From contig KE546983.1 in the NCBI GenBank assembly GCA_000442125.1, positions 625,581 to 689,580 on the forward strand: 64,000 bases of DNA. The letters are read 5' to 3'. This document shows, in pieces, positions 9,322-63,823 of this stretch (position 1 is the stretch's first letter; the number at the start of each line of letters is the position of its first letter). A model generated the notes under the pieces. It was not told the DNA's origin. It saw nothing but the letters and a program-made list of their open reading frames with translations, and did no database searches. The translations under genes and the position numbers were made by a program. The DNA is from Opeltia flavorubescens (lineage: Eukaryota; Ascomycota; Lecanoromycetes; Teloschistales; Teloschistaceae).

Positions 9322-11491
9322 GGATTGAAGTATCGGACGGGATCGGTTCATCTAAAGAGAGCCAGAGAAGGAAGGGGCTGGAAGGAGTAGGAGGCGTTTG
9401 GTGTTGTAATTGTTACGATAGGGAAGCGGTGGTTTCATCCATGGTAGGGCGAACGCTTGCGAGATCCTAGAGAGCGTCGATACCCGTCTTGCCGACTATA
9501 ACGACGCACGTCAAAAACACCTAATACATCATTTGACGAAAACGTTTACTCTTCCTTTTACCGCATCTACACTGCAAGCTGTTGAAGCGCTGATCGAATC
9601 CATACTCCATCGCAAACGTCGCTAACAAATCGCTCGCCATAGGTAGTTGAGTAGTGGAAGACTTATCGATATATTCGTTGAAATTCTGTCCAGCACGGAG
9701 CATCAAGTTCCCCATGTTCCTACTAACGATCATTGATAGTCTCCATATAGGAATGATCAATAGTAACGCAATGATCACACGCACATAATATTGGTGAAGT
9801 CTTTGCCAGTAATCCAACTCCAATTTTGGATGACAAACCCAGTGCGATCATGGGCCAAACAATAAGATCGGAGAAGGGTATGTTAATTTGCCTAAGTATA
9901 TCTAGAAGCTAAAGACCTCGTTCGCATTTCATACACGTGCAAGAGGCTTGCAAGGTAGATCTGGATGTCAGATTTATGAGAACCGCCAAGATCATCTGAA
10001 TACCAACGGGAGTTCGATTAGTTTGGTGGGTGTGATGGGTGTAATAGAGGGATGGAGGGATGGAGGGATAGATAGCTGAAGGGGTAGGAAAGGTAGAAGG
10101 CGGATGAAAATTTAGTCACACATACTATCCACCAAGTATAACAGATCTTGACAGGCCACGCAATGTTTCGTCTCTTCGTATCGTCTCATATGGTCAGACA
10201 TGTCACCACAATCTCCGAACCTTGCAGAAAACAGACACGAGCGGATGCGACCAACAGTGACCGCGTGCCCGGGCAGACCGCATCGTGAATCGCAGCAAAG
10301 ACTACTGCTCTTACTTGTTTTAACAGGGAGCTGGATATATTGAGAGAATCTCTTGTTATAAAGTCTGAAAATTCGATTCTAAGCACGAGAGGTTATATAA
10401 GGGATCGAATATAAATGGTCATGCATGAGATAACTCTTATAGTCACTTATATATAGAATTTAATGTCGAACTGTACATTCCTAGTATCTTTAGAAAAAGC
10501 CTTTGCCTTTGTTAACGATACCTGTTCTCCAAGTGTCTATCCGGCACTATCCTAGTCCTTCCCCTCCGTCGGCTGCTTAGGCGGCGGAGTTGCCACTCGC
10601 CAATGGAGGATTCTGTTCGATGTGATTATTATGATCCGATTTTACTCTTTTAGTGTAGTAATATAGTCTCTAAGTACTTTTTCGTCCGAGAGGAGGAAAT
10701 TCCATGTCTGAGGTATACGATAGCGCATCTTCAGATGGAAGTACGCCTAGTTAAAGGGCTTTATTGCCTTTAAAAGAGTATTAACCTTAACCAGAAGGTT
10801 TGGATCCAAATAGGTTGATCACTTTATTCATTCGTTTAAGGCTATATTTTATACGGTATCGCTGTACTTTTAGACTCAAGCCCGTTACTTCGTCAGAAGT
10901 CTCGACTTTATAGATAATCAACCCGGATATTTTTGAGCACCTTTTATACGAGATTTAAACGACAAATAATGCGCCATTGCTTTATATCCATATTTGAAAA
11001 ATACGCGGAGGGACCATAGGCGCTTCCACCTTACTCTAGGCTCTTCCTCGAGCTAGCGATAGACGCTGGATTATACGACTTGGAGGTACTGTAAACAGAT
11101 ATAATAAAAGTATTATAATTGATTGGGCTGTTTTAAGACAGAGTAGCTGCTTTCCGATTGAAGAAATAGGCAGGGTGGATGCCTGAGGCTCGCAGCTATT
11201 GCTGAAAGTAGAGGTCTTGTAAACGTCAGTCCAATCGTCCCAAGGATTTCGAAGAATTGTACCGTTTTGTTCGTGTTGACGTTGGGATAGCAATATAGCA
11301 AGTTATGCAGAAAAGCTGCTTTCGCATTGACATACAGACCCGGGAGATTGTCCAGCAAAGATTGGTCTCACTGTCAGAATTACGACCTTTCCGCGCACAG
11401 TCCCAGAGCTATGCTTGGCGAATTCTGTTACCAGCATTGCTAGTGGTGGTCGAGGACCTTACGCTGCTGACAGCTCTCAGACTGGCAGGCC
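9322..11491. other. degenerate stretch, no supported gene
   Basis: Contains a 100-codon minus frame (9823-9521) with a hydrophobic run (VRVIIALLLIIPIWRLSMIV) and a 66-codon minus frame (10386-10186), neither recognised. The part 10400-11000 is AT-enriched. Short GGAGGGAT-type tandem motifs lie at about 10051-10070. Confidence 0.35.
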
Positions 11492-11929
11492 TCATTGTCT
11501 TTGGCAAGAGTGGTTCCGAAAGAACTCAAGAAGTACGTCCAACAGCTCCGAGAAAGCGCGATCCTTCAATGAAGGCAATGAAACCAAGATTCCACGGCGA
11601 AGTAGGCAAGGAAGCTGCAAGCGGGCTGTGATAATGTCGGGAGCACGATGCCATATGGCCAGAACAACTTTTTCACCAACTTGATACGATCGAACACCTT
11701 GGAAGTCCACTGGAGGAGCCCTTATTCCTGCGCACGGATGGCTTTTTGTATCACGTCGTGGCGAGATAAACATACTTTCCCCCCGACGCTGACGTCGTAA
11801 ATTTAAACCCGCATCAAGGGGAACATCATATCGGATAGTGCGTATGGTCGCTAGCGGCATCAAACCATCTCCAGTCCTTGATGGAGCCCAGCTGAAGCTG
11901 AATGTGGTGAAATTCGGCGACTTTGGCAT
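11492..11929 (-). pseudogene. probable cytochrome P450 C-terminal remnant
   Basis: The minus frame reads LMPLATIRTIRYDVPLDAGL, RRGESMFISPR and then VDFQGVRSYQ. This resembles the fungal P450 stretch PLATxRxVxxDxPLxDG ... KGexVxxxP ... PxxFDGFRxY after the ExxR helix. In a neighbouring frame just downstream, SGHMASCSRHYHSPLAA resembles a decayed FGHGxHxCPGRFxA heme loop. The expected order and spacing support a P450 (about 500 aa when whole) of which only the C-terminal third is traceable, in two frames. I-helix and K-helix motifs were not found. The identification is tentative. Confidence 0.4.
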
Positions 11930-12672
11930 TCGCTTGGTCGATTGCCATCAATTATCGGTAGATAAAGAATTAAAACCCCCAAAGCATCGTAGGTCAAGAA
12001 GCTAAAATAGCGGATAAATTTCCGAAGGATACTATAATGCGTACAGCAACAACAGCGAGGTGATCCGCGGAAAGGACCGAGGCCGCTAGGTTGAGTTTTG
12101 ACAAGCGTGCGCGCTGTTTCTTCCTACTGTTCGGGGTTACTTTCTCTCCTTTTGAGGGTAGGAGCGGCCCTGTTTTACAGATAGGAATATCTTTATTTGA
12201 CACCATCCCAAATAAGATATCCTCAAAATCACCCAGTAGATGTAGTATCTATATATACTCCGTATCAGCTAACTCGTATAAAGATGAATATTCCGCCCCA
12301 GCCGCGGACCTGTATAGCGAACGTCGAAGATATCAGGCTACTGAAACGGTTGGACCGAGGAATTTTCAGGTATAAAGCTACCCACCAGCTTTAAATAAGG
12401 GTCGGGCCTCAATTAACAGAACCACGACCTATTGGTAACACAAAATACTTCGGGTCCAGCTGTTATCCAATAACTCTCTTGATCAAGCTTTATACGCTAA
12501 TATTGACGTCGACTACGGCGACTTTTCTGCTGACTTGCCCTTGGACGCAAATCCATCACCCGAACTCCCAGCGACTTTCTCCTCGGTGCAACGATGGTCG
12601 CGTGAAGAAGGGAGACTTGGCAGACGACCACTTGAAGTCCGGGAGGACGAAGCTCAAAGATGCAGCCAATGA

Positions 12673-14541: not shown

Positions 14542-14622
14542 ATAACGGCGCCGAAGGCTATCGCGAATGGATAGGTCTGGGGACGATATTATAGCAAAAC
14601 TAGATGATAGTGAGATCAATTT

Positions 14623-14672
14623 ATAGCTAGCCGTAGGGGACAAGTTCATAGCTAGCTGTAGGGGACAAGCAC
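14623..14672. repeat. 25-bp tandem duplication
   Basis: Two adjacent copies (14623-14647 and 14648-14672) of a unit starting ATAGCTAGC and containing GTAGGGGACAAG. They differ at about three positions. They lie between the coiled-coil remnant and the AT-rich block. Confidence 0.85.
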
Positions 14673-14808
14673 GATAGATCATTCGTGGTCAGTCGCTCTA
14701 GCGTTTTTAAGTATACTCCAAATAATAACCTTGAGTTTTCGATTTAGCATCTCCAGAGCCTAAGATATCGAGATAATCTTAGAGAATAAAAAGTTATAAA
14801 ATAGAAAT

Positions 14809-24588: not shown

Positions 24589-25672
24589 CCTTTCACCTAA
24601 CTTCTTCCAGCCTACAACCTCTCGCCGCCTCCAAACCTAAACCCCTTACTCCCCGTCGGTATCCACAGGTGTCTTACCAACTACTATATACTGATTCCGC
24701 GGCCACTAAAAACCCTCCAAAATATAAGAGACCGATAGGACCTGCTCGCAACAGCAAGCGACTGAAGCGAGCGACTTCTACGGCTCAGAAGCAAGGTGAG
24801 TTATCGTCCTTCATCAAACTCCATCCACGGACTTGATAACAGCTTCTACAATACCTGACCCTCCTACGTCCCTCCTTGCTCCCCTTCCCGAAGCCCCATC
24901 CCGAGAGCCTACACAGGCACCCTCACCCTCAAATCCTGCAGAGGCCCCGTTCCGCAAGCCTACAAAGCCCACGCCCTCACCCTCACCCTCAAAACCTCCA
25001 GCGTACCCAACTCGAGTCACACGATCAAAGGCCGCACAGCAGAAACAGACATAAGTGAAACGAAAGATGGATCCAACTAAGCGCGCTCTCGCCGAGCGTT
25101 CGAATACTCGCGGACTCTTGAAGAAGGCAGCTGCACAGCTAGACTTGAACAACCCCCCACGCCTCACCAATCCAACTAGTCCATGCAGTCCAGAGAATGG
25201 GAATGGGAATGGGAATGGCATTGGCAATGGCAACCATGTGCCAGGACAAATGGGCAGTCCGAGTCGTGGAGGGGAGGCAAATCGTGGTCGCGCTCGAAGT
25301 CAAGGACAACAATTTCAGACACGTGGTGAGGAAAGGGAGGGATGTGGAAATCAAATGGCTACACACAGTGCGAAGGATAATGCGGAAGAAAGTCCCTCTA
25401 CCCCTAGTTGGCGTCCTGCTTTAGGCGCAGGTCCCAGTCCTTGCCCTGCCTCGGGGTTGTCTGCCAGCCGTGAGATGTTCGCGCGTCCAAGGGATTATTT
25501 TGAAGGCGTGAAATCTCTGTTATTTCGCTTGCAGTTGGAATTACCGTCGGAATCATTGGGGAGCAGTGCAAGGACCATAATGTTGGAGAAGTCGCGGTCT
25601 CAATTCCTATCCGAGTCTCGCAGTATACTGACTAACAAATCAAGAGGGTCGCGATCCTATTCCCCGATCTAG
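24589..25672 (+). pseudogene. Pro/Ser/Lys-rich hypothetical gene with one intron, interrupted
   Basis: A plus frame open from 24589 reads SLQPLAASKPKPLTPRRYPQ and KRPIGPARNSKRLKRATSTA. It crosses a 47-bp GT-AG intron (24796-24842) into Pro-rich repeats (EAPSREPTQAPSPSNP) and RVTRSKAAQQKQT. A single in-frame TAA at 25052 follows, then the same frame continues as KRKMDPTKRALAERSNTRGL, a Gly-Asn run and a Ser-rich tail to 25672. A basic, disordered, probably nuclear protein is implied; no domain is recognised and no convincing start ATG is visible. The TAA could be a CAA-to-TAA change, so it is called interrupted. Confidence 0.45.
25198..25236. repeat. GGGAAT hexamer repeat
   Basis: About four GGGAAT units followed by GGCATTGGCAATGG variants, encoding Gly-Asn dipeptides in the plus frame. 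The upstream 24910-25000 stretch also has repeated CCCTCA motifs. Confidence 0.8.
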
Positions 25673-27178
25673 TCGCTTACAAAACCGTTGACCAACGCTC
25701 AACTGACTGTGGAGTCTCTTAAGCCTTGCTGGTCTGGAATTATCAGACTTTCTACTAAGTACACTTCCCTAGCTATATACTGTCCATCAATTCCACCTAC
25801 CTAGCCCTTGAATCTCGTAATGTCATCCCTAATTTGCAGGCATACTGATCCCATCTCGCAGACCCTCCACGGCGACCCATCCATCACCTCTGTTATGTAA
25901 GATCTCATCGGCTACTGCCCCCATGCAAGGTCCATCTGCCAGATCCGTACCCATGAGATCCCGCATGAGCAATGGCTTCACGAGCTCTTCGACGATGAGC
26001 CCGATTTCTAGCCTACTTTCCAAACCAAAGTCAATCGTGAGTCTCCATTCCTACAATGCAGACGAAAGCTCACACCAAGATCTAGTAGACTCTCCAGCCC
26101 TATTCCATCCCCGCTCTCTCTGCTGCAAAGCTTCACCACTAGCGCTTGGCAGCAACATGAAACCTCCCCGAATGTCTCTTACCCTTTTTGGCAGCAATTC
26201 GAGGAATCCTGGAAGCGTCCCCGAAACCTTCTGGCAGCTCCATGATGATCTCCCCCATCCTCTGTCATCGATATAACCCTCCTGGATGATCTTCTGCGAC
26301 GACGCCTCCTCATCCCTGGCCTCTCTAGCAATTACCAGTGCTTATCGCGCGGCTACGTTGTACCCGGAAGGTATCGCGGGTTATCGTTTCGATCTTTATT
26401 AATCTACTTTTAGACTATGTCTACTGTTTATGCATGNTGCTCTTCGATATCCCGGATTTCCTTTAGGCTACCGACGATACAGTTTCTAGCAAAATTTAGA
26501 GGTTCGACTGAGTTATTGGCCCTGATTTGTAGTTCTTAGGGGAGGCAGAGAAGAAGCACCCGAGTAGCTCCTTCCTCACCCCTTCTTCGGAAGCAATCTG
26601 GTCAACATGTGAAGATGATCGTCGATTGGAGAAAACCTGAAGACTTAATAAATTGCTGGCGATGCGATTTAATATTACTAGAGGGCTTATCGCTACATCT
26701 ATTAAAGGACGCAGCAAAGGTTCAACGGTTTTTAAAGGTGTTGCTGGTAATCCAGCAATGGGAGTGCAGTACTAAGGTTTGACAGGTGGAGTGAGTGCAT
26801 CTTCACTATCTACTCCTTGACTAGGGTGATTAAGAAGCCGACGACCGGACTATCGTTAAAAGCTACGCTCATCTCTCGTGGTACCTGGCTTCGGAATCTG
26901 ATGGGTAGAATATGATGCCTGAACCAGCCTGGAAAAATTACGTAGAGGTAAAAACTTTGCGTGGCATGTGATTGTTACGTTGGCACACTCGCAAACTGGG
27001 TGACATTAGGACAACTAGCCAAATTCCGAGCACTGAAAGCTTCAATGCAGGTGGTGCGTCAATGTCCCGACTGCGCTCCTTAATTGTCGCAATCGCTATA
27101 GCCTGGTTGGGATTAGTGCGACCCAGTAACCGGAGCTTGGTGCAATGCGCGCATACGATTGGCCCATACAACGTGAGA
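25673..27178. other. no supported gene
   Basis: Several competing frames. The plus frame at 25923-26276 is Ser/Pro-rich (117 codons), and another frame over the same DNA reads HEIPHEQWLHELFDDEPDF, suggesting a decayed gene of unknown family. There is one undetermined base at 26437. From 26300 to 27180 I see no motif. Confidence 0.35.
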
Positions 27179-27608: not shown

Positions 27609-30600
27609 ATGGCTTCCAAGAAAAGTTTATCATCAAGGCATCCCAAATTTAACAAGCCCCAGCAGACAATCTCGCCGCAATCCCAGTCCAGTTCCCCCTC
27701 GCACTCAAATTACCTGTCTTCTTTCCAGTCGCAATTTCACGTCGTTGACCAACAGGAGTCGGCTATTCCATCAGATTTAGATATCATCAAGTCTCTAAAG
27801 TCATTCGACGAGCTTCTTACGTATAGTAAAAAAGCGATCGTATCTAGAAATAACCAGGCCCAAGCAATTGAAGCTCAATTTCGTGAAGAATGCGAATGGA
27901 TTTGCAATAATGCTGGTGAGAAAGCTAGCACCAGCATATCCCGAGTACTGCAGTTTAAAAAATGGATCGAAAACATTGACGAGGACCTCGGGCAAGGGAG
28001 ATGGAATAAACTGATCCACACGTCTAAGGATACATTGGTGAAAATGGCGGCCTATAGGAGCCGTATCCGTGAAAACTGGGGAATTGGCCCTGAGCAAGTG
28101 TTTGAGTCTTCAATGTACCCGTCGAAACCACTAGCTAGAACCTGGTTGAAACACATGTCCGACATCGCTGAGCGAGTCTCGCTTGATGAAGGTCGACTAC
28201 TCATCACGCAGCAAATTGGGGTTCGAGTCGCAGAAGAAGGCAGGAAACCGAAGTCTCGCGGTGGTGCTCGCCCTGCTGGCAATCAGATTACTACTGGTGA
28301 TCTGGAATCTGTCCGTAAAGCCATTCTGCAAAAGCCTAAGATAACGGCAGAAAAGAAACGAAAGGGGAGTGATGATGAGAATGGATCTGCAGTAGAGACG
28401 AAGCGCAGCAAGCATGGCAAGTCTGCAACGCCGGGGCCGATTGATACCCAGAGCTATCCCGACGCAAAGTCCTCGCCTTTCCGTGAGTCATTCCCAGTCA
28501 TGCAATCATCACCCGTCACAAAATCTTCTCCTCTCAAGAATGCTGCCAAAGGAAGAAAGCCTAAGGAAGACCATCGAAGCCCGAGCAATGATCAAAAGGC
28601 TTCCGTCGTCAATTCCCAGGATGTCGAAGCTACCGACACGAGCGACAGAGTACCTATTGATGATAACGCCAACGGCAGCGGCAACAATAAAATACCAGAT
28701 GGAGCTGCAACGGATCTGGATGACGAGAAGCATAAGGATATGGTACAGCAGACGAAAATCGTGCTTAAGGGTAAGAGTATCAATAACGCAACGCCTGACA
28801 GCAGAGAGAAACAGCCGTATGTGCCCCAGACTCCTCCCAATGTACACCAAAGTACCTTGGGGCGACGCACAGGAATTGGACGAATGCAAGATGACGACTC
28901 TAGCGAGAATGATGAATCTTTCATCAACGATACCACTGTAAGGCCTTCCATTCCTACCAGTCAAGCATCCTTACTGACTTGCTTCTTGTTCACGGATATG
29001 TCAACTAAGAAAGCGAAGAGGGTTCAGGATACCTCCGACGACCAAGCTAGCAAGCTTGACATGCCACAGGATTTGACGCTTCTACTCCTTACTCCGACTC
29101 CTAGTACTTCTCCCTTCACACGCTTCGAGCCCTCGTCAGCAGTCTCGTCAAAGGGTAAAACATGGTCCCTGCCTTTCTCCTACTATTTGAATGATAACTG
29201 TTTTGAAGCAACACTGTTAAACCATGACTCTATGGCAGCCCTCGACAGTATACCTTACAGTGACGCCGCAGGTGCTCAGGCGTCACTTTCCCCGGGTAGG
29301 TGTTTATCAAGTACCGCCATGGAGTTGATTCTCGATTTGTTTGCCGCCGACACGGTTTATTGCTTCGATCCCTCCTATTTCAAAATGACAAATCCTCGGG
29401 AAATCAGCCTTTTCAAACGTGATGCGGATGACCACGCTATTATCGTCTTACCGTTAAACCACAATCAGCATTGGACTGTCGCTATCTTTGATCGAAAAGA
29501 GCATAGTATTATCCACTACGACCCATTAAAAGGCGGAGCTGGATCAGCTGCGGATATAGCTCTTCTTCAAGAATATAACAAAATCGACGAAACTCTGGAA
29601 TGGAAAGTTAAATCCATTACGAGCGCTAAGCAAACAAACGCTTATGACTGTGGGGTCTACGTTCTTGTCACCGTTATTTGCATCCTGAATCAGCACGCTT
29701 TTCCCGATCGCATTGACCGCATCGACGGTGACCTTTGGCGACGGGTGTTCTACGATATGCTAGGAGGCTCCTCCAACCATGAAGATATCCATGCATCGAT
29801 GTCCGCACGAAATCAACCAGGTGAATTTTCATTCGTTCCCCCTTCCCACGCCCTCTAGGAACCTCTCTGAGAGCCCTGCTAAGACAAGATATTACGGATA
29901 TAGATCCGCCAGCATCAGCGCCAATCTCTACATCCTGCGATTACACTATCATATCCGATTTCGTCTCTGCGGCCCTTCGCTCCGTCCATCATTCCCAGCA
30001 GCAGCTTTCAGCATCCAGGGCTTACCACACCCAAAGTACCTCAGTCGTTAACATGATTACTCATGCTCATCAACGCGCTGCTAACAAAGCCACCTCAATA
30101 CGCCAAGATAATGCCACACGCCTTGCTAAAAATGAAAGGCTCGCAGCTTTCATTGGCGAGCCCAAAACCTTTAGTCATATGGGATCGGAAGAAGACTTGA
30201 ATGGATTACAGTCGATATCGGCCAAGGCTAAGCGAGAAATCAACACGCAGAAGGCCAGAGTAGAGAAATGGGTCGAGCGAGAGCGGAAGTTGGCGGTTGG
30301 CATTGAAACGGCAAGGTTGGTTTATTTTCCCTCGTCCCCCGTTCCTCGACTCAAACCTATAATATATCCTTCGAGTCAAGCAATTTACTCCCTTTTCACG
30401 GTCTTCGTTAGCCCTCGGTTCTCCTTTTCCCATTCCTCCACCTTTTTCCTCATATCCTTCTCTTTCTGCTTACTCCGGTATCTTACCCACGTTTCATACA
30501 TCGCTAATCCCTCCCGTTTCTCGCGCAGGAGCATACGACTTGAATACGAACGCTTGATCTCAGACTGGGAAGTGCGCTCCGAAGACGCATTGAAGCAGTC

Positions 30601-30673
30601 TAGGAACCTTAGTACTCTCTTGAAGCAGGGGCAGGCGAGGCTTGATGAAGTGAACTCCACGAAACTTGATTAG
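27609..30673 (+). CDS. Ulp1/SENP-type (C48) cysteine protease with C-terminal coiled coil
   Basis: From the ATG at 27609 the first exon (to 29820) encodes a Ser-rich N-terminus, a helical region (about residues 55-210) and a long basic disordered linker with repeated SSP motifs (about 210-480). A protease domain follows at about 510-720. The catalytic set is intact: His621 in QHWTVAIFD, Asp638 in IIHYDPL, Gln675 and Cys681 in KQTNAYDCGVYVL. C48 enzymes remove SUMO-like modifiers; here the substrate is unknown. The uninterrupted frame stops at 29858, but an intron starting GTGAAT at 29821 would remove that stop. The same frame then runs on to 30315, crosses a 213-bp intron (30316-30528) and ends at 30673 with a coiled-coil tail, giving 937 aa. 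Similar proteases also occur in some DNA transposons, but no terminal repeats or transposase were seen. Confidence 0.85.
29821..29858 (+). other. predicted short intron bridging protease and coiled-coil exons
   Basis: GTGAATTT...CTCTAG, 38 bp, which is short for a fungal intron. Alternative acceptors in the same phase (for example 29873, 29888 or 29903) give 53-83 bp and also keep the downstream frame open. Whichever is used, the stop at 29856 is removed and translation continues in the frame of the 30053 ATG. Confidence 0.55.
30316..30528 (+). other. intron, 213 bp, in the coiled-coil region
   Basis: Starts GTTGGT, has GCTAAT at 30503 and ends GCGCAG. It is pyrimidine-rich, and its translation is Ser/Phe-rich, unlike the charged coiled coil on both sides. 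It is an exact multiple of three without stops, so retention would add 71 residues; splicing joins AG-G to give ETARSIRLEYERL. Confidence 0.7.
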
Positions 30674-31920
30674 ACAATCTAGTATCCTTGAGCAAATTGT
30701 TTGCTGTCTGCTTGAGCTTTGCTCTCTCAAATAGTCTCTACGCCGGCTTAGCCGGAAGAGTCAGCTTTGGAGAACGGGAGAAGAGTGACTTCCACACCTG
30801 ATAAAAGCGGGGAGGATTCGTGTAATGCTAGAAGTTATTATAGGGATTGATAGAAGGCCGCAAAGGTCATTTACCCAGGAGCGTCCGCCAAGGTACTATC
30901 GAAACCAAGAAACGCTGTATAGCGGATTGTATTGAATAATTGTAAAGGTTTAATTCAAAATAATATAAGTAGACAAAATCTCGTATATTGTAAAAGTAGA
31001 GAGTTATAAAAACTATACGATATCCTAGGACTTTTCGACGGTTTGAAAGATAAATAGGTAAAAAAATAAGAAATTTCCAGATCTTGGATACTTAGATCGC
31101 AAGTCCGTTGTTTATAGCACCCTCCTTAGCAAATGGTTCTAAATTCTTTCGAAGTTTCCGGAAGAAATAATATAGGGAAGCAGAGATTAGAAATGCGCAC
31201 TAACCGCTTTCAGCTCCGGCACGTGCCGGAGCAAAGATTTTAGAACATTGGCAGATATCGTCCCTTGCAATCTATGATATAGATACTGTATAGAAAAGAC
31301 AAGGTTATAGATAAAACTTATTTGATAAGTAGCAAATTTCAAATACCGACTCATTCCTGGTATTATATAGTTCAAGTATAGCCTCGGGTCCCAGTCCTAT
31401 ATCGATATTCGACCATATTATATTAACCCCTTTTCGCTCTACACGTTAATAAATCGATTAAAAAATCAATTACCTAAAACATAACCATATCGTCAATAGC
31501 GTGAACAAGAATGAAACTTATTATAGGTAAGGTACACACTATATATAAAATTGCAATTTTATTCTACGCAGGTTCTCTATAAAAGCTGGTAACTAAACCG
31601 ATTCATCCGTTCCTAATCCCATTATATGCCCTATAATAGGTTCTTCTGACAATATAGACCAGGTAATTATTAGCCAGAAGATTTTTTGCAAAAGCTTGAT
31701 CCAGATTCAACTTCTGTTATTATAAGCCATTATCTATAAGATAAAGGCCACTCTTTACTTTTAGAAACACTTCGAAGAGAGAGAGAGAGAAAGAGATTCC
31801 GAATAGTGGGAAGGAGAGGGTATACTATCTGTTACGATGCTCCTCCGGAGACGAAGAACAATGAACAGGAGCGTTACAATAGCGCTGCGAGCCACATCCT
31901 ATTACGTCCATTCTTAAACG
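30674..31920. other. intergenic, no gene seen
   Basis: Moderately AT-rich, with a short GA microsatellite near 31777-31795. No coding motif is visible on either strand. Confidence 0.5.
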
Positions 31921-32194
31921 GCGTTCTTAGAGGTGTATTACTTGAGATCTGAATCGACTATCTTATTTCCCGAAAAGCGAGGATTAATGCGGTAGAGAGC
32001 ATTATATAAGAGTCCAAGGAAAGTCTATTCGCCGGTCACTTATACATATCCCTAAAGATGGATAGTCGGCAAGTTGTTCTTCGGATGGAAGAATACGAGA
32101 ATTTATTCACCTTCTCAGGCGTAATGTCCTTGACAGTGATATCATCGTGCACTTTCCACTTGTCGACCACCTTGCCGTACTCCAGATCCATCCA
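31921..32194 (-). pseudogene. VID27: VID27 (vacuolar import and degradation) C-terminal fragment
   Basis: The minus strand reads WMDLEYGKVVDKWKVHDDIT, then DITPEK, a likely intron or insertion starting GTGAAT at 32110, then VTGE-stop-TFLGLLYNALYR, INPRFSGNKIVDSDLK, a stop, and YTSKN. This matches VID27's MDLExGKVVxEWKVHDDIPV ... MTGEQTFLGxSxNALYRIDPRLxGNKLVDSxLKQYTSKN. VID27 is a conserved cytosolic protein with a WD/beta-propeller-like C-terminus; in yeast it is tied to fructose-1,6-bisphosphatase turnover. Only about 80 residues remain of the usual 750 or more. Both stops replace Gln codons by TAG/TAA, the change expected from C-to-T mutation. Confidence 0.75.
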
Positions 32195-33540: not shown

Positions 33541-35160
33541 GAGGACGAATAAGTGAGAGGATTCGACGATGACTTATTCCGCTGCTCTATCCTGCGAATG
33601 CGAAACTTTTACAGAGGAAAAATCCGAGGAATCTTTAGCGCAAGTAATATTTGATTGGGAAGAGGCACTTATAAGAAAATATAACGCCGCCATGACGGTG
33701 TAAAGCATCCTCGAAGTGGGATGAGGCAGAGTGATACTTGGAGAGTGAGACGAGTTGGGAAGGAGCGTGGATTGGTCTTGCCAGAAACCGGACGAGCAGA
33801 GGCCTGACTTGGAACTTCTGGAAGGCGGACTATTACCTTCGAATTCCACAAACATCTTTCACTCCTCTCTCGTCAAATATGACACTTTATTTCTGCGCGA
33901 TTCTGCTGCGATGTCCAAAGCCTGGTGGGACAAGATCTTCGAAATCATATGGCACTCAAGCTTCAGCAAACCACTCATCAATCATCATCCAGCTGCAAAC
34001 ATCGCAAAAGCCCCAATTAAGCGGATATTTGAACATAAAGCAGAAGAGCCTATGCATCAAGCTCAGGTACCAGGAGGTCAACCATACCAAGCAATTGATG
34101 AGAGGGGGGCGAACAAACGAAACACCCGAGGAACCTCACGTCCGTCAACCAATGGTTCTGCCAAAGAGACAATCCAACCTTCTCAAGGTTGATCATTCGG
34201 CCTTGCACTCTTAACCCCATCGCTAACATGACTCCAGTCTGGTCCTTGCCTGACAAGAAACCCCTCCTTAGTAGGAAATGGATATCCGCTCGGCAAAGCC
34301 CCTATGGCCAACCATACACACGCAAACGCAATACCAACATCAAGCGCAGGCTCCCAAAGCACGACATACCCGTCAATGTGGGCTCTCCGCCGCACCGGTA
34401 CCTTGCGCGCAATTGTTGGATTCTCCAGCATTCCTCTGAATCGCCATGAAGACCCAGCTGGGCCGGGAGCGGATTCGTCTGGCAGTGAGAGACGCGGAAT
34501 CGGCCTCCTCCACGCGTCGCCAATGGCTGCGGCGTGCAGCTTTGCATTCGTCGAGCTTGGAAATGCTAGTCATTTACCAGTAGCTGACCGCCAACACAAC
34601 AACAGTCAGACGCTCGAATTTTGAAGCATGGACCCATGATAGAAGACGAAGGACCAAGGCCTGACCGGCCCCGTCGGATGATTGACCGCGGGGCAAAGGC
34701 AAATCGAGTCCAAGCATTCGGTGAACTCGCCGGACTGGTCTACGGAAGTCACCTCTATAAACGTTGGTGTGCTGCTTTATAGGAAAGGTGTGAGGTGCTT
34801 CGTGCAGAAGGTGGTGTGGTTCTTTGTGGGGGAGTTGCAGGCGGAGGGACATCTGGGACTCGGTAGCTGGTGCTTCGGTAGCTTAGGAGAAGCTCTTTCG
34901 ATTTGTGCAAAGACGCCAGCGTCTTCCTTGTCATCGACGACAGCCATAGCGTTCGGCGCAGGGTTTCATGCTCCAAATATTGTCGGAGCCATTAGAAGAA
35001 CTTCCCAGTAAGCTTTTTCTTGTTTTGTCTTTGGTAGCTGCCTTAGGGCCACACCGAATAATATGTCGGACCCTCGAGATTGTTTCTATTGAAGACCGAA
35101 GAATTGTTCATCAAGGTGAATATCGCTGTACTTTCAGGGATTGAGGACCACCACGAGACT
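33541..35160. other. competing ORFs, possibly decayed membrane protein on minus strand
   Basis: The minus frame 34431-34183 contains YVVLWEPALDVGIAFACVWL, which resembles the last transmembrane segment of oligopeptide (OPT) transporters (YNYxLSAALDxGxA), but the flanking family motifs were not found. Plus frames at 33738-34214 and 34682-35011 have no recognisable motif. The region is called undecided. Confidence 0.25.
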
Positions 35161-38100
35161 CTACTTCGCTCCCGATATCGGTACGTTGCTCAACCGTTTA
35201 TTGCTTAGTATGAAAGTATCTTGTATCAAGCGGTCGATTACCTTCAGATATAGACAACGATGTAATAAAGCCGTCTTTTCTTCGACTCCGCAATCACTAT
35301 AAGCTGAAAATCTCATTATACTCAGCAGCAGCCTTGGCTTTACGGAATACACGTGACAAGATTTCCCTCTCCTTGGGTGGGGCGTATCACACCTAGTCCG
35401 GTTTAGCGCCTTATACTCCGGCTTGGCATTTTCCCGCATTTTATATATAATTCCACAAAGACTCAGCAAATAATGCACTTGCTAATCGCTTTTCACACGG
35501 CTCAGCGAAACCAACGACGTCAAGCTTCCACTTGAGTGTAAGATCTCGCTACCCGCTCAATCGTATACGAGGTACAAGATGAAGCATTTTCCAACGAGGG
35601 ATTAGCGGCCGCCGTGACTAGACTCTTGGCCTGAACGGGTGATGAGTCGGGACTGGTAGGCCTGTCACTTCTTGCCGTTCCCTTCCCACATCCCTGAAGC
35701 TAACTGACGTACCGCATTCAGACGGACCAAAATCAAGCCAGCCGTGCCGAATCCTTCCCTATACTACGGCTCCTGCCTTCCTATAGAAGTCGATACTGGC
35801 TTCTTCAGCGCTTGATGAAATTCCTGCTAATCAGAAACGTGGACTCCTAGTCCCGCATTCGGCGATTCGTACAGGGGATACAATCCCGGGAGGAGAACAA
35901 GAGCTACGATCATGGATGGGCTATGCTTCAAGATTGGGAGAACCACCGATAAAGTATGTGGGCTGGACTAACGGCGCGCCGTTCTGAGTCTGGCCTCCTT
36001 CGGATCTTCCAATGAGTAGAGTCAAGTTTAATGTTAATACTGAATATGCATACCTATACAATTTTAAGATGTTACAAAGTGGGTAATCATTTGCACGCGA
36101 AGGGACTAAAAGGTTGACTTCACTTCCAGACTGTTTCGCAAAAAACTAAATGCAACGCCTCGTTCCGGTCGAATCACTCAAAATATGCAAGACGCAACCA
36201 ACCAGGACTTTTGCACAATAGACCCAGCGCTTTTGGGACCAATATTACCCTAGTGGCGAAGTCGCCCGACGAAAGAGTACTACCGCTCCAGCGGCAACTG
36301 GACTAGCATCTACAACATTGACTCGTATATCAGGCGCAGGGGCTGCAAGGAGAGGAACTCACCCGACGACTACACCGGCGTATCGCGCTAGAGGTATAGG
36401 GGTCGGAGGCGGAGTATCTACAGCGGTAATACCGAGATAGCGGAACGTGAAAGAGACCGCAGACGAGAGTCACGCTTCTCGATAATTCGGGAGAAGGCTT
36501 TGCCCTCAACTGCAGGTCGAAGACACACGACAGTCATGTGTTGATCTAGAGGACAAGAAAGTCAATAGGTATTCATTGCCGGGTGTCGGGGCGCACTACT
36601 CGTTTCAAAAATTATCTTGTAGCCTTTTACATTGTCTCTAATTAATTCGCCTTGGTTCTCCTGGCCTATCCCTGAGCTCTATCTGCAGCACGTCGAGTAT
36701 CACCCCTGCCAAATTTCCGCGATTGGGCGAGTGCAGTCAGCGTTTGGTGGTCTCGTATCTCCATCTCCTGCCCAGGTTGCTTCCCAAAAAAAGAATTGTT
36801 CACCATTGACTGCTTCGAACAGCCTCATTCGACTACGCTTCTTGAAGCGACTGGTGTAGTACGGAGTATCCTGGCATTAGCCTGGGATGAGCGCGGTGTA
36901 ATTCGGAACGTTGAGTGTCTTCTCTCCAGCTTCCAAGCTCGTAACCAATGTGGCTACCTAACCATTGACTGCGTCAAACAGCTTTATTCTTGCGAAACTG
37001 CTGGTAAGACGGACGGAGCTTTCCGGAAACGGTCATGAATGAATGCGAGGTGTAATCGGAATACCGAGTTTCTATCCTGCGTCGTTAATATCTTGTAATG
37101 ATGGCTGAATCCGGAGGAGTATCGTAATAGATAGTGTACCCTCGAGCTCCTCGGGACTTTTGAAACGCCGTAGATCTGGTTATTCCTACAATATGTGGAC
37201 CGAAGCGTTCACCAAGCATACCGGTCTCTGGCCAATAGCTCTCAAAACCGTGGGTCTATAATTATCACTAGTACCTTTAGTAATTTTCTTCCAAGGACTT
37301 GTTGGCATGAGATATATATCATTTAATCAATCGTCTCGCCGATGTTAACAGGAAATTGAATTGCAAGCATACTTAAATATGAAAAGGATGCTGCGGAAGG
37401 AAAAGACTGGGTTAAGTGTAGAAGCATTGTGATATTGAGAGGCCATATTGCGATTCTGAAAAGGATTTGCTAGACGCCTTGGTCTGCAGAATTGTTGGTG
37501 TTCCGAGGAATCAAATGGTCGCGTCGGAGGACTCTGCCGGCTTGCGCGAAGAAATACCCGTAGCTGTGTCATTGCAACGTTGCTGTTCATTGTAGTTGGC
37601 TTCGGGGGGAGCGAAAACTTATTCCTTCCTATCCTTCGGGGCTATTCCCTTTCCTAGAAGCATTTCTGAGGGTAAAAGCGGCCCTTTTGTATATTCTCTA
37701 TAGTGATGGCTGCCTGATCTTTACTATTAGAAGAACCTATCGTAATACGCGTAATACGTAGGAGTAGATAAATTGTTTTAGTCGCCAGCTTTATAGAACG
37801 ATAGTATATATTGAAAATACAATAGTATACGTGGTATATACTCTTTCCGTATAATATAGTACCAGGAAATAATAATTTTGAAGGATAATAAGGCTCGGAC
37901 TTGGATACTACCTGAGTTCGCGGTATAACCACTCGAATTAGTACTAGTAGGATACTATTGGTATAGTTGGGTATAATATAATCGAGGACTCGGATTGAGT
38001 AAGCTTCACCTTCGTCAACGCCTTGATAAGGAATTTGTCCTCGAGCTCTTTAGGGCGGTCTGACCCCGAAAGCCCAGTACTACCTTCGGTATCAATTCAA

Positions 38101-58695: not shown

Positions 58696-61636
58696 GTGTA
58701 CAAAATTAACAATATGGATCACTTGGTAAGACCCAGCAACCGCATCGCAATTGATGCAGTCCCAGTCTTCAAAGCTTCTCTGGATCTTTACGACGGCCTG
58801 GGCTTCGAAAACTTTCCCAGTCGCGTCGAGTATACATTGCAAGAGCCGGTAGCACGACAAGCACGTGCTACCTTCATGCAGGGATGGCTTTACTTTGGTC
58901 TTTTGCGCGAGATCCTCGGAGACGATCTACACGTAGAAGATTTTGTCTCCCTTGCACCTCCGGATCATCAACAATACATGCCAGACCAGTGGTATCTTAC
59001 GACCGTGAAGCTGCCTATATATCTCCAAAATTGCTCGGGTTTCAAAGCCCGCAGTGTCCTGGGCTTCTACCTTCCGACGAAACTACCGGTCCGTCTGCAA
59101 TCTGGTCTGCTCGCTTTTGTGATAGATGAGTGCAATCGATACGAGCAACTCTATGGTCAGTCGTCTGAGACTGATCAAGGAGCCTTACCATTGGTACTAC
59201 TATCCATCCGAATCTTGATTCAGACACTAGACAGGTTCAGCGACCACTACTGTTTGATCCCACTCAAAAGCCATATTCCGGACCCTGTGTACGGAGAGAG
59301 CTTGTTATCTATCCAACCAATCCAGCAGCATATGCTCCGACAGTCGTCAGTGTGGTGCCCGCACCAAGTACAGTATCTTGTCAAGACATTCTCCTACCAT
59401 ACCCTAGTCTACTTGGCCGAACTGAAGCGAGACGTGGCTGATTGGGTCGACCACAGTCGTTGCTCCAAGGAGAGTCGTTGCGTTGCCTACAACATCGATG
59501 ATACGACCTTTGAAGGTAGACACGTCGGTAAATGCTCCGGCTGCACACGGATTGATGCTCCTCTGGAAGAAATGATGTCAATACTCGAAGCCGGCGATAT
59601 CCCTCTCCTTGCTTGTCACCATGATGGCAGAGATCTACAATTATCGTATATTAAACTAAGCTCTTCCACCCAATACACGGCCGTCTCGCATCTCTGGTCG
59701 GATGGCCTTGGGACCCCCTCTACAAACTCGTTGCCAAAGTGTCAGCTGCAACGCCTCGTTGAGCGGGTCCAGGTAGCAGAGTCATATGGACGCAAGAAAA
59801 GCTGGTTCGGTAAAAAGGGGAGATATATAAAATTAGCAACAGATCCGACGCTCATGTGGCTCGATGTCTACTGCGTACCTGCTTCCACAGCCTCCAATGA
59901 TCTCGCTCGAATAAAATCTCTGAAAGCTGCTGCTATCAACCGCATGGTACCCACCTACGCGTTGGCCCGACAGACACTGGTCTTGGATTATGAGCTGCAG
60001 CACTACACTCCAATCACCACAGATGCAGTACAAGCCGCTGCCGAAGAGGAGTTCCTTGCACGGATGGTGATCAGCGGCTGGCGCTCGAGGTGCTGGACAC
60101 ATCAGGAGTCTCAGGTCTCTCGGCGAATACTGATACAATGTCGTGGGTCAACGGTCGCTTTCGACCACAGCCTCTATCGTCCACCACGACCCCAATCGAG
60201 GGTCGGTAAGGAACTCGATATCACAGCGGATGAGATGCTAGCCTGGCGTGGGCAGGACTATTCTGAAGCAGGCTGGCGCGCCTTACTCTACGTTAATAAC
60301 CCGCTGGTGATTCCCAGATTGAAATACGTATGGGGCAGCTTTCATGGCAAGACCACCAGCCAGCCTCGCGATGCACTCGGCATCTTCGCCAACCTAATGA
60401 GACTGAGCGCTGCGCAGATCAGCGCAATGCCGGTTGAAGAGCAGATGCGAGCCATTCTACGCGCGGCCATCAATCTGGAGGGCAAGATACCGACCGGTAT
60501 CTTCTTCTCCCCTAGCCCTCGTCTACCGTCCTCTGTCAGACTGTACGACTTCGATCGATGGATTCCTCGCTTTCCAGGCGAAGGCGGAGATCTGGACTAC
60601 GGAGCTGGTTCCGCTAAAGTTACCCCAACGGGGTTTTACCTACCCATTGATCGATACTATAAGCGGGGCAAAGGTTGTTTTGCTATCAAGATACCAAGGC
60701 CAGATCTAACCACCTTCCACGTCGCATTCGAATCGAGGGTTCTGGAGGTTTCATTGTGCATTCATGGGCAGTTGCCGCAGTTACCGGAGGATGTAACACA
60801 TCTGTTCTTGGTTCTTGCCATGCCGCAGAGCGAGACTGCTTTTGAAGGGGTCGGAGCATGTTTGATCCCGCTTAATAACAATCCTGTGTGTCTCGTCCCC
60901 ATCATCGGTAAAAGGTGGTTCTTTGACGCTGTCTGGTACTGCTCGTTGCGCTTCCGCCAGGAGGTCAAAGACATGACCGCTAGCAGCGAGCAGCAGGACC
61001 CCACCAGTAACGAAACAGCGATGCTGAAACCGGAAGCCGAATCACGCGACGTCGTTATTCGCAGCTGTAAGTGGAATCCAATGAAGTACTAAAATCTTCG
61101 CAATGCATTGCTGACCGTAGCACAACCCAATAGCATGGTACTTCTGGGAAACCCCCAAATCCCTTCTTGGCCGGCGGAGTCCTAGCATGACCTTCTGGGC
61201 CTGGTTCAGCTTCTGGGGCCTCCCCGCCATCGTCATCGGTGTAGCCCCCTTGGTTACCTTATACCAAGACGGCGGTACGACGGGGATCATCTTTATTGCC
61301 TGGTTCATCTTTGCAGCTTCATGCTTCCACCGCACCGCAGGCTTGGTAGAACGAGCGAGGTGGATCCTGGTGATTCAAAGCTACAGCCCTGAATTCGATC
61401 ACAAGGAACAATGGTGGAAGAGGTTGATACGGCAGCTCGGGAAGTTACCAGGGCAGGGGCGGTTTGATATTTTTATATTGATGGTATATGCCTATTGGCC
61501 CTGGCTTGTAATTAGGCCCTGGGAATACGCTTGGGAATGGATCAAGAGGGCTTTTTTGGTGGGGCGGGAGTGGATGAAAGGGAGGCGAGTGGGACGGATA
61601 AGGATTGGGGATGAGGTACCGCTATCTGTGCAGTAG
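58696..61636 (+). CDS. HET-domain protein with C-terminal membrane region
   Basis: Exon 1 (58696-61066) and exon 2 (61134-61636) encode 957 aa. A Cys/His-containing lead-in (CSKESRCVAYNIDD, GKCSGC) precedes the HET domain at about residues 325-480: YTAVSHLWSDG (Trp334), LMWLDVYCV (Asp390) and GWRSRCWTHQE (Trp467), the three family blocks in order. HET proteins act in fungal non-self recognition and trigger incompatibility cell death when activated; many family members are unstudied. Exon 2 adds hydrophobic segments at about 811-834, 838-856 and 901-919, so it is probably membrane-anchored. The start could also be the second Met (58714). The frame is fully open although it lies only about 480 bp from the AT-rich block. 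Confidence 0.85.
61067..61133 (+). other. intron joining the HET exon to the membrane exon
   Basis: 67 bp, GTAAGT...AATAG with TGCTGAC 21 bases before the end. Exon 1 leaves one base and exon 2 supplies two (TCA), keeping the downstream frame. Without splicing the protein would stop at 798 aa and the 150-codon membrane frame would be orphaned. Confidence 0.75.
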
Positions 61637-61934: not shown

Positions 61935-63823
61935 TCAGAAAATACTCTTCTTGATCTTTGCTAAAACATCCCTTCTAAACGCAGGCAGATAGACTTCCAA
62001 CCCCCATCGAGCGATCGCTTGAAGGACGTGCAGGATCTTGAAAGCTCCCATTACATGCATCGTATTCCCAATCTCCCATGGACCAGCGAACTGGACCTGA
62101 AAAGGTCTTGCACCTTGCGTTGCCGCTTTAGTCTTCACCGTATATGCAATCCACAAGACCCAATAATCTCCGTGAATTACAATAGCAGGGACCGGTAAAT
62201 CCATCCGCCATCCTTCCAGCCAGCGCTTAGTGAACTCGGCAGTGATCCAGACCGCTAGCTGGATTAGAGGATCCCTAATATCCGTCTTCACTTCGGTGCA
62301 GCTGAACATTGGCTTCATACATGTGAAATCTGTTTGGGTTTGATTGATGCTGGCGGGCCCACCGACCTGGTAACGGCCGGCACAGAGGACTTGTCGCTCG
62401 GCGTTGGATAGCTCGAGAGCCAGTGTATAGTCAATCTTTTTATCAGGATCAGAGAAAACGTCGGTAGGAGAAGTAGGCAGGAGCTGGGCTGGGGCGATGG
62501 AGACCGTGGAGCTGCACGAAATCAGTATTAGGATTACTCGCTGCGGATGCGGAAGGACGAACACATTCAGATCTTCCATCATCTGTTCATCTCCCGCCAG
62601 AAACGCTGCCAGCTTGACCAGTCGATTCAGCAAAGGTTCAACGACTTGACTGGACCATTGCGGTTCATGGGTTTGGCCACGATACTTTTCCGCTTGGGTA
62701 AGGACTCCTTTGACTGTCTCAAGGACTTTGTCCAGATCGGCCGGATAGTAAAGACCTTCTGCGTAGGCGCCTCCGTGAATCTGTGTTTTGGTTTTCATTG
62801 GAGTGTTGTATCTGTTTTCCAGAGGTCCCTGCGAAGGTTAGCAACGATGATGGTACAATCGAAAAGCTCTCAACTCACCGATCGTTCCTGAGGTATAACT
62901 CCTGTTGCGCTGATTGCGGATGCCATGTACTGGGACCAGAATTGGACGACCGGCTTTGGCACCATAGGGTCCTTGAGGATTGCGGGGGAATGGAAAAAGA
63001 TGGCTGGTGCCATTTGTGCTAGCTGGTTCCTGGACTTAAATCGCCGTAGTCGAGGTACTCCCGCTCTCGCTCACATCTGATTTCTTCGGGGATATAGACT
63101 TCTTGCGTCCTGTCTTGGATGGCGATGCAGACTTGGAGGCATTGCCAGATCTGCGCGAGGGCGTTTGGGGACTGAAATAGGGGATTGGGCCGCCATCCAA
63201 TAGAGGTGGCCGATCGTTTGATACCGCCAGCAGTCCATGTCTCGCCCGCCTTCTCCCTCTTGTAATTATACCATGTTCATCAGCCTCCTCTTCAACCAAA
63301 GCCTCTTCCATGCCGGAAGCTGCGTAAACATGATTGCCTCGACCTTGAGCAGTATTTCGCTTACTCATCTGGAAGCGATCAGCGACCGGTGACGGGAATC
63401 GGTAGCGTTGACTGAACCTACTCTGTGGATGGTCGATGCAATTCTGGCCGAACGGCGAGGTTGAGGGTGGAGGACTAAAGCAGTNGAAGGTTGAGTGACT
63501 GGTTTTGCTGAAATGCGACGTTTCTTTCGACAAGGATCAGAAGGGGATTCGGCCTTGCGCTTCGGCCGACCGGCTGGTGATGGCGGATGGGGTGAAGAGG
63601 CTGTGGGAAGACGTTGAGGGTTTGAGGAGACTGGTGCAAGAGGTTTCGCAGATGGTCGTGGTCGACGTGACTTGGGCGAAGGCGCGAGATTGTATGAGTC
63701 TGGCAGCTGGTCAATCCATGCGGTGATGTTGGAGGAAGTTGTAGGAGTCGAAGTGGTATTCTGAAGGTGGGCGAGGATAGCGGGCTTCTGCCGTGAATGA
63801 GTCGTTTTCTGGGAAGGACTCAT
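61935..63823 (-). CDS. fungal PD-(D/E)XK nuclease-like protein, one frame break
   Basis: Three exons on the minus strand: 63823-63422 (134 codons, basic, Ser/Pro-rich, KRKAE and KKRR signals), 63368-62879 and 62828-61935. Introns are 53 bp (GTAGGT...TTCCAG) and 50 bp (GTGAGT...GCTAAC...CGCAG), both in phase. Domain landmarks follow the fungal PD-(D/E)XK_12-type family: GGPIPYFSPQTPSRRSG, QLAQMAPAIFFHSPAIL, KIDYTLALEL, ASINQTQ, then CTEVKTDIRDPLIQLAVW with the ExK dyad and a Gln. The catalytic core looks intact; a nuclease role is inferred from the fold only. Exon 2 is not a multiple of three: the frame ending STSTTAI must shift to continue as KSRNQLAQ near 63040. That is either a base error (an N occurs at 63485) or a real inactivating indel. 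Confidence 0.7.

What the first reader, a model, noticed from the sequence alone, without database searches (positions are those of the whole stretch)
27609..30673. Ulp1-type protease fused through a hidden intron to a coiled-coil tail
Read without splicing, this is a 749-aa protease followed by a separate 206-aa ORF. The two frames are in register across a GT-AG intron that removes the stop, and a second intron cleans up the coiled coil. The resulting 937-aa protein, with intact His-Asp-Gln-Cys and a dedicated coiled-coil module, is the only strongly preserved gene in the central 44 kb between decayed sequences. That suggests it is under selection or recently arrived. Its family function appears unstudied.
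Basis: partly seen in the sequence, partly recalled or inferred. Interest (0 to 1): 0.7.

Follow-up and report, generated by a model that had tools for sequence, protein, structure and literature searches.

The report
Accessory-contig SUMO-protease-like gene with tail
A fungus carries an intact, spliced gene for a SUMO-protease-like enzyme with an extra helical tail, one of a decaying gene family that sits mostly on small, core-gene-poor contigs that look like accessory chromosomes, where enzymes of this kind are also reported in other fungi.

Summary
The fusion is real, with a corrected boundary. A diverged paralogue on contig C18 (protease 49% identical, tail 32%) has both introns at matching places and phases. 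Intron 1 is therefore most likely 68 nt (29821-29888), not 38, and the product about 927 aa, not 937. Three other copies hold protease and a helical tail in one uninterrupted frame. Catalytic His-Asp-Gln-Cys is intact; the Trp-Leu-Asn-Asp motif of true Ulp1 is Cys-Leu-Ser-Ser.

The larger result lies around it. Of 14 non-canonical C48 loci found, 12 sit on C18, C19 and C21: 6.8% of the genome, chosen after seeing this, holding 0 of 115 loci of two core families. All extra copies found of VID27 (8), EB1 (6) and INCENP (1) lie there too. Accessory minichromosomes of Parastagonospora and Colletotrichum carry Ulp1 genes, and one carries VID27.

Best reading: an active, probably nuclear, SUMO-type protease of a fast-turnover accessory-compartment family, aimed by its N-domain and tail. 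A role in keeping such chromosomes is bold and untested.

The parts
27609..29820 (+). exon 1: N-terminal domain, low-complexity linker, C48 catalytic domain
   Evidence: open frame, PF02902; donor GTGAAT at phase 1, as in the C18 paralogue
27765..28350 (+). N-terminal domain shared by 5 loci; no Pfam or PDB relative found
   Evidence: alignment A2; leave-one-out profiles find all 5 of 5 (E 1.6e-8 to 1.3e-12 among 1000); Pfam; PDB profile search best E=1.1
29274..29766 (+). C48 (Ulp1-type) catalytic domain
   Evidence: PF02902 best stretch aa 603-699; family alignment A1; PDB Ulp1 and SENP matches; outer limits set by eye
29469..29471 (+). catalytic His621
   Evidence: HW motif aligned to Ulp1
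29520..29522 (+). catalytic Asp638
29631..29633 (+). oxyanion Gln675
   Evidence: Q-x5-C motif
29649..29651 (+). nucleophile Cys681
   Evidence: DCG motif
   Evidence: matches position and phase of the 69-nt intron of the C18 paralogue, whose stop is TGA; the two alignment columns differ by 3, within a gap
29889..30315 (+). exon 2: linker and most of the helical tail
   Evidence: tail 32% identical to the C18 tail; BLASTP E=6.5e-27
30316..30528 (+). intron 2 (213 nt, phase 2), in frame and stop-free
   Evidence: same alignment column and phase as the 252-nt intron of the C18 paralogue
30529..30673 (+). exon 3: end of tail and stop codon

Best explanation
A three-exon gene makes a protein of about 927 aa: an N-terminal domain without known relatives, a low-complexity linker, an Ulp1-family (C48) cysteine protease domain with its catalytic residues intact, and a helical, probably coiled-coil tail of about 190 aa. 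SHOWN here by sequence comparison: the gene structure (from a paralogue), the order of the parts, the intact active site, and membership of a family concentrated on three core-gene-poor contigs. INFERRED: it is an active isopeptidase of the SUMO or another ubiquitin-like pathway, probably nuclear; the altered motif (CLSS for WLND) means an altered grip on SUMO or a different ubiquitin-like partner; the N-domain and tail aim it at particular partners, as a C-terminal region aims yeast Ulp2. The family turns over by birth and death in an accessory-like compartment where RIP-like mutation acts on repeats, and the copy in the window is one of the few catalytically complete survivors.
For: PF02902 E=2.6e-11. 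Single-sequence PDB matches to an Ulp1-like SUMO protease (6dg4, E=1.8e-8) and yeast Ulp1 (1euv, E=2.2e-5). Both introns matched in position and phase by the C18:396k paralogue. N-domain related across 5 of 5 loci tested. Protease and helical tail in one frame at C18:541k, C15:1387k and C21:358k; at the broken copy C21:524k the end of the protease and the tail share a frame. Catalytic tetrad intact in 4 of 8 aligned non-canonical copies, Asp to Asn in 2, degenerate in 2. Codon-position pattern of purifying selection in the protease. 12 of 14 non-canonical loci on C18/C19/C21, against 0 of 115 loci of two core families. The frame of the canonical ULP1 gene on C4 ends 11 residues after the catalytic domain (a hidden intron was not looked for there). 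Yeast Ulp2 is recruited to the kinetochore by a C-terminal motif (PMC6892545, passages).
Against: No transcript, protein or activity data. The tail is weakly constrained, its coiled-coil signal in the window copy does not beat shuffles (P=0.12), and leave-one-out profiles relate only 4 of 8 tails. The WLND motif is altered. The tree of the catalytic domains does not make the non-canonical copies one clade. A basic cluster that could be a nuclear signal passed my threshold in 4 of 7 copies but not in the window's. Linker disorder was not computed.
Confidence: 0.62

Rival explanations
1. Accessory-chromosome maintenance factor: the protease strips SUMO from kinetochore, centromere or cohesion proteins and so changes the loss or transmission of the chromosomes that carry it.
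For: Non-canonical C48 loci and the extra EB1, INCENP and VID27 copies lie mostly or wholly on C18/C19/C21. Ulp1 genes on accessory chromosomes of P. nodorum, C. graminicola and C. lentis. Mutating the Ulp2 targeting motif and SIM raises chromosome loss in yeast. Drive of fungal accessory chromosomes is reported and its mechanism is said to be poorly understood.
Against: Purely by location and analogy. The EB1, INCENP and VID27 pieces in the window are decayed, so they cannot act as such. Deletion of a C. graminicola minichromosome Ulp1 gene gave no growth, conidiation or virulence defect; chromosome loss was not mentioned in the passages read. No significant clustering of the four families within contigs (12 tests, lowest P=0.026).
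Confidence: 0.15
2. Toxin-like or antidote-like protein of a selfish element, comparable to Spok genes or to the Ulp1-type and PD-(D/E)XK toxins of Wolbachia (the latter recalled).
For: PDDEXK_12 nuclease-like genes share the compartment, 7 of 9 loci, one of them 31 kb from the gene in the same window. Spok homologues are abundant on Fusarium accessory chromosomes (abstract).
Against: No kinase or nuclease family reached E=1 in the protein apart from C48 relatives and weak unrelated matches. No linkage with the three other families tested; neighbours in general were not compared. No toxicity data.
Confidence: 0.08
3. Transposon passenger or domesticated transposon protease; C48 proteases occur inside some DNA transposons (plant CACTA elements, abstract start in the listing; otherwise recalled).
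For: The gene lies between RIP-like AT-rich blocks; degenerate inverted repeats occur just downstream at 31.6-37.7 kb.
Against: No transposase family in the seven window ORFs scanned (the AT-rich blocks were not scanned). No near copies in the genome, only two short DNA matches of 72% and 79%. The downstream inverted repeats coincide in part with pieces of a C10 gene. The only pair of 20 nt or more that flanks the gene is 23 nt at 78% and AT-rich.
Confidence: 0.1
4. Relic gene: the protein is no longer functional and the open frame merely survives.
For: Many family copies are decayed; the tail is weakly constrained.
Against: No stops in the exons, catalytic tetrad intact, splice sites intact and codon-position bias in the protease domain; chance of 749 open codons about 7e-15.
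Confidence: 0.12

Closest known systems
Canonical fungal ULP1 (within C4:597143-599227 in this genome; yeast Ulp1, PDB 1euv)
   Same: C48 family, catalytic His-Asp-Gln-Cys in order, Q-x5-C motif
   Different: Canonical ULP1 has WLND where the window has CLSS, and its frame ends 11 residues after the domain; the window's N-domain and tail were not matched to it
Ulp1 genes on P. nodorum accessory chromosome AC23 (SNOG_16274, SNOG_16214)
   Same: Ulp1-annotated genes on a small accessory chromosome (PMC8146201, passages)
   Different: Sequences not held here; whether they have the tail was not tested
Ulp1 and sentrin/SUMO protease genes of Colletotrichum minichromosomes (GME6619/CGRA01v4_15035, CGRA01v4_15056, C. 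lentis Chr12)
   Same: SUMO-protease-annotated genes on minichromosomes; one such chromosome also carries VID27 (PMC10779208, passages)
   Different: Sequences not held here; architecture not compared
Spok toxin-antidote genes of accessory chromosomes (PMC12693581, abstract and passages)
   Same: Expanded, fast-diverging family enriched on accessory chromosomes
   Different: Spok has nuclease and kinase domains; none was found in this protein
Yeast Ulp2
   Same: SUMO protease with a C-terminal targeting region (PMC6892545, passages)
   Different: The locus here that I read as Ulp2-like is a separate one, C17:444971; its C-terminal part was not compared with the tail

Membership tests
Peptidase C48 / Ulp1 family (PF02902) | domain score above the curated cut-off | tested here: met
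   44.2 bits against 20.7
Peptidase C48 / Ulp1 family (PF02902) | His, Asp, Gln, Cys in order, with Q-x5-C | tested here: met
   H621, D638, Q675, C681; motif as given for A. niger C48 in PMC7804941 (passage)
SUMO-specific Ulp1/SENP subgroup | WLND-type motif at the substrate tunnel (role recalled, not from a call) | tested here: not met
   CLSS in the window, MLST in C18:396k; WLND kept in the own canonical ULP1
SUMO-specific Ulp1/SENP subgroup | cleaves SUMO precursor or conjugates | not testable with these tools
   needs an enzyme assay
Canonical ULP1 orthologue | catalytic domain at the extreme C-terminus | tested here: not met
   about 190-aa tail; the canonical gene is at C4 with 11 residues after the domain
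Spok-type toxin-antidote | nuclease and kinase domains | tested here: not met
   Pfam scan of both frames
Transposon-borne C48 gene | transposase in the same element, terminal repeats, multiple similar copies | tested here: inconclusive
   no transposase family in the seven ORFs scanned, no near copies; terminal repeats inconclusive; AT-rich blocks not scanned
Accessory chromosome (C19, C18, C21) | 0.2-3.5 Mb and poor in core genes | tested here: met
   0.68-0.87 Mb; 0 of 115 core-family loci, P=3e-4; size range and low gene density from PMC9508043 (passage)
Accessory chromosome (C19, C18, C21) | rich in repeats | tested here: inconclusive
   AT-rich, RIP-like blocks seen in the 64-kb window of C19 only
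Accessory chromosome (C19, C18, C21) | presence/absence among strains | not testable with these tools
   one unnamed assembly, no relatives held
Coiled-coil protein (tail) | heptad periodicity | tested here: inconclusive
   6 of 8 tails P<=0.03, window tail P=0.12

The most novel reading that the evidence does not exclude
Fungal accessory minichromosomes of different classes share a recurrent set in which tail-bearing Ulp1-type proteases are the active members, alongside copied VID27 and, in this fungus, copied EB1 and INCENP genes of the spindle and inner centromere. The proteases reset SUMO marks on segregation proteins in favour of the chromosome that carries them, as a B-chromosome-like maintenance or drive system. 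The copied core genes are the scars, or the lost partners, of that system.
Probability: 0.12. Interest if true: 0.88.

Novelty: new variant of a known kind. Interest (0 to 1): 0.57.

Why it matters
How fungal accessory chromosomes are kept and driven is open (PMC9508043, passages), with Spok genes as one proposed answer in Fusarium (PMC12693581, abstract). A protease family of the kind that erases a mark used at kinetochores, found mostly on such contigs here and named on accessory chromosomes of two other genera, gives a concrete and testable second candidate. It also shows that gene calls that miss the first intron would hide the tail.

Tried and rejected
A transposon origin was tested by DNA searches of the gene and both flanks, inverted repeats and Pfam scans, and not supported, though not excluded. 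At first I took 31.6-37.7 kb for a gene-capturing element with terminal repeats. Part of those repeats proved to be pieces of one C10 gene in opposite orientations, so I do not claim it. Linkage of C48, VID27, EB1 and PDDEXK_12 loci within contigs was tested and is not significant (12 tests, lowest P=0.026); an earlier test of VID27 within 5 kb of C48 found 2 of 8 (P=0.065). A tree of the catalytic domains resolved well only two pairs. A PDB profile search with the N-domain gave nothing (best E=1.1). Leave-one-out profiles did not relate 4 of 8 tails (C18:541k, C21:358k, C18:713k, C19:583k) to the rest. The profile search with A1 includes the own canonical ULP1 as one of nine rows, so its strong Ulp1 hit (E=5.7e-27) is partly circular; the single-sequence result is the one to use. 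Literature: ten searches listed no paper that I recognised as describing this architecture or linking EB1 copies with accessory chromosomes; one search returned nothing, only the top of the long lists was shown, and most subscription journals are not held. PMC10076810 was searched for SUMO, sentrin, Ulp, C48, protease and VID27 without a hit.

Dropped before counts: four C48 loci that I read as canonical types (C4:598k, C17:444k, C7:1826k, C3:11.6k) are not in the 14; with them the count would be 12 of 18. The protease-less locus C19:581-584k and the C17:78k and C3:188k fragments are not in the 14 either. Of the 14, a tail or tail-like stretch was seen at 9 and not established at C18:733k, C18:472k, C18:456k, C19:559k and C10:1495k. 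The three contigs were chosen after seeing where the C48 hits lay, so the P of 8e-13 is post hoc; the PDDEXK_12, VID27, EB1 and core-family counts came after. Helicase_C and Mito_carr hits (83 and 108) were merged into 78 and 37 loci at 4 kb; carriers alone give P=0.07. C16 also holds only 1 of the 115 core-family loci, and C22 and C23 none, so core-gene poverty is not unique to C18, C19 and C21. VID27, EB1 and INCENP were searched because pieces of them had been seen in the window. One of the eight extra VID27 loci (C19:640223) is below the family's cut-off and rests on a DNA match as well. The INCENP row runs across the joint of the joined query; the DNA match is its support. All genome counts are lower bounds, as the tool says.
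Full report
WHAT IS THERE. The window is bases 625581-689580 of contig C19 (789,623 bases) of an unnamed assembly of 34.4 Mb in 23 contigs. I take it for a filamentous ascomycete (inference) from its introns, a PDDEXK_12 gene and a weak HET match, and AT-rich blocks of 9-11% G+C with depleted CpA and TpG (ratios 0.12 and 0.26 against 0.87-1.26 in the other stretches measured), as expected of RIP. The gene lies in the island of normal composition between two such blocks. Among ATG-started frames of 150 aa or more, the longest other one between 14.5 and 58.7 kb and outside the gene is 201 aa.

GENE STRUCTURE. Exon 1 (27609-29820) ends before GTGAAT at phase 1; the stop 29856-29858 lies inside the intron. 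Six in-frame acceptors lie within 130 nt. The nearest paralogue found, C18:394709-399166, has the same arrangement: a protease frame, a stop, then a tail frame. Its donor is at the matching place and phase, and its shortest in-frame acceptor gives 69 nt. The matching acceptor of the window is 29888, a 68-nt intron. Intron 2 (30316-30528, 213 nt; 252 nt in the paralogue) falls in the same alignment column and phase; the columns of intron 1 differ by 3 within a gap. Intron 1 of the two genes is 56% identical, within the shuffled range (mean 43%, maximum 59%), and intron 2 is 53% (mean 46%, maximum 54%), whereas the protease is 49% identical in protein (88 of 178), the tail 32% (61 of 188) and the N-terminal part 26% (104 of 405). 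This is the pattern expected of real exons and introns. The product is 927 aa.

ARCHITECTURE. In three other copies (C18:541k, C15:1387k, C21:358k) protease and a helical tail of 190-240 aa lie in one uninterrupted frame. At the broken copy C21:524k the end of the protease and the tail share a frame; at C18:713k a tail frame follows after one in-frame TGA; at C21:183k and C19:575k tail-like stretches lie in another frame. At C19:581-584k an N-domain frame and a tail-like frame lie side by side and no protease was found (L037). The N-domain is related across all five loci tested: leave-one-out profiles give E of 1.6e-8 to 1.3e-12 among 1000 sequences. It has no Pfam or PDB relative. The tails are less uniform. 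The window's tail matches that of C18:396k (BLASTP E=6.5e-27), and C15:1387k matches C21:524k (3.6e-16), with a marginal link between the pairs (0.02). Leave-one-out profiles find these four but not the other four of eight tails. Heptad periodicity beats shuffles at P<=0.03 in 6 of 8 tails, not in the window's own (P=0.12).

ENZYME. PF02902 scores 44.2 bits. The best solved relatives are an Ulp1-like SUMO protease (6dg4, E=1.8e-8) and yeast Ulp1 (1euv, E=2.2e-5). Of eight non-canonical copies aligned, four have the full His-Asp-Gln-Cys (window, C18:396k, C18:541k, C18:733k), two have Asn for Asp (C15:1387k, C21:358k) and two are degenerate (C18:713k, C18:472k). The WLND motif, kept in the fungus's own ULP1 on C4, is CLSS in the window; that it lines the SUMO tunnel is recalled, not from a call. 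In the protease the differences from the paralogue by codon position are 0.41, 0.24 and 0.57, a sign of purifying selection; in the tail 0.48, 0.39 and 0.47, which is weak.

WHERE THE FAMILY LIVES. From, after setting aside four C48 loci that I read as canonical types (C4 ULP1, C17 Ulp2-like, C7 SENP8-like, C3:11.6k), 14 non-canonical loci remain, 12 of them on C18, C19 and C21, which make up 6.8% of the assembly (binomial P=8e-13; post hoc, since the contigs were picked from this list). A. niger has 3 C48 peptidases (PMC7804941, passages). Two core families, Helicase_C (78 loci) and mitochondrial carriers (37 loci), have 0 of 115 loci there (P=3e-4). PDDEXK_12 has 7 of 9 loci there. These contigs look like accessory chromosomes, but presence or absence among strains could not be tested, and C16, C22 and C23 are poor in the same core families.

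COPIES OF CORE GENES. The flanks hold decayed pieces of core genes: ULP1 itself (window 26584-26973, minus strand, 70% DNA identity to C4), VID27 (31916-32193 and 14575-14740), INCENP (33913-34352) and EB1 (36002-36432), besides pieces of a C5 and a C11 gene and of an unnamed C10 gene. In the whole assembly VID27 has one core gene on C5 and eight further loci, all on C18, C19 and C21, one of them below the cut-off. EB1 has one core gene on C10 and six further loci, all on those contigs, some matched only over short or Ala/Pro-rich stretches; INCENP has one core gene on C9 and one further locus, the one in the window. One EB1 copy (C21:296026-296388) is 82% identical with an open frame. The two large core families had none there, so such copies are not spread evenly over core genes; but VID27, EB1 and INCENP were picked because the window held pieces of them, and no random sample of single-copy genes was run.

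COMPARISON WITH PRINT. Ulp1 genes are named on accessory chromosome 23 of P. nodorum, whose authors noted a possible link to minichromosome stability (PMC8146201, passages). On minichromosome 11 of two C. graminicola strains a Ulp1 gene is the one of 25 shared genes with a named function, and its deletion gave no growth, conidiation or virulence defect. Chromosome 12 of strain M1.001 carries a sentrin/SUMO protease and VID27, and C. lentis chromosome 12 a Ulp1 gene (PMC10779208, passages). ULP1 is also among the most enriched domains in genes unique to F. zanthoxyli (PMC11110190, passages). None of these sequences is held here, so shared architecture is untested.

HOW IT MOST LIKELY WORKS. A cysteine isopeptidase of the SUMO or a related pathway, probably nuclear, carried to chosen partners by its N-domain and tail (confidence 0.62 for the whole statement; my own estimates are near 0.9 for the gene model and near 0.75 for proteolytic activity). 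That it serves the chromosome it sits on is the boldest reading the evidence leaves open (0.12). It rests on location, on the recurrence in other fungi and on the role of Ulp2 recruitment in chromosome stability in yeast (PMC6892545, passages). Against it stand the decay of the copied core genes in the window, the lack of clustering, the missing phenotype of the one deletion in print and the absence of functional data here.

Noticed in passing
window 26584-26973 (minus strand): Decayed piece of the fungus's own canonical ULP1 gene (C4:597970-598332, 70% DNA identity; 43% aa over 147) lies about 0.6 kb upstream of the Ulp1-type protease gene, on the other strand.
   Followed up: partly
window 31916-32193, 14575-14740; also C18:796k, C18:808k, C19:104k, C19:572k, C19:614k, C21:253k: Eight extra, partial VID27 loci, all on C18, C19 and C21, many with internal stops; one core gene on C5.
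   Followed up: yes
window 36002-36432; also C21:296k, C21:322k, C19:564k, C19:736k, C18:322k: Six extra EB1-like loci, all on C18, C19 and C21; the C21:296026-296388 copy is 82% identical and open.
   Followed up: partly
window 33913-34352: Decayed piece of the INCENP gene of C9 (79% DNA identity; core frame has PF03941, E=2e-16).
   Followed up: partly
L037 (C19:580800-584700): Family locus with N-domain and tail-like frames side by side and no protease domain found; its N-domain is related to the others (E=1.6e-8), its tail not detectably.
   Followed up: partly
window 61935-62798 (minus strand): PDDEXK_12 nuclease-like gene (PF20516, E=8.9e-26); 7 of 9 loci of this family lie on C18, C19 and C21.
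   Followed up: partly
window 58714-61092: 792-aa open frame with a weak HET-domain match (E=0.032, below cut-off).
   Followed up: no
window 10363-12186, 31584-31842, 36749-37143: Pieces of one unnamed C10 gene (C10:1219.9-1221.3k) recur at several places in the window in both orientations, and short matches to the same stretches lie on C18, C19 and C21.
   Followed up: partly
window 15.5-24 kb and 39-57.5 kb: AT-rich blocks of 9-11% G+C with CpA/TpG depletion, which seem unusually extreme for RIP.
   Followed up: no
window 25238-25393 (inside the 201-aa ORF 25067-25672): 78% DNA match to C17:78221-78377, about 0.5 kb from a tail fragment of the protease family (C17:78862-79016).
   Followed up: no
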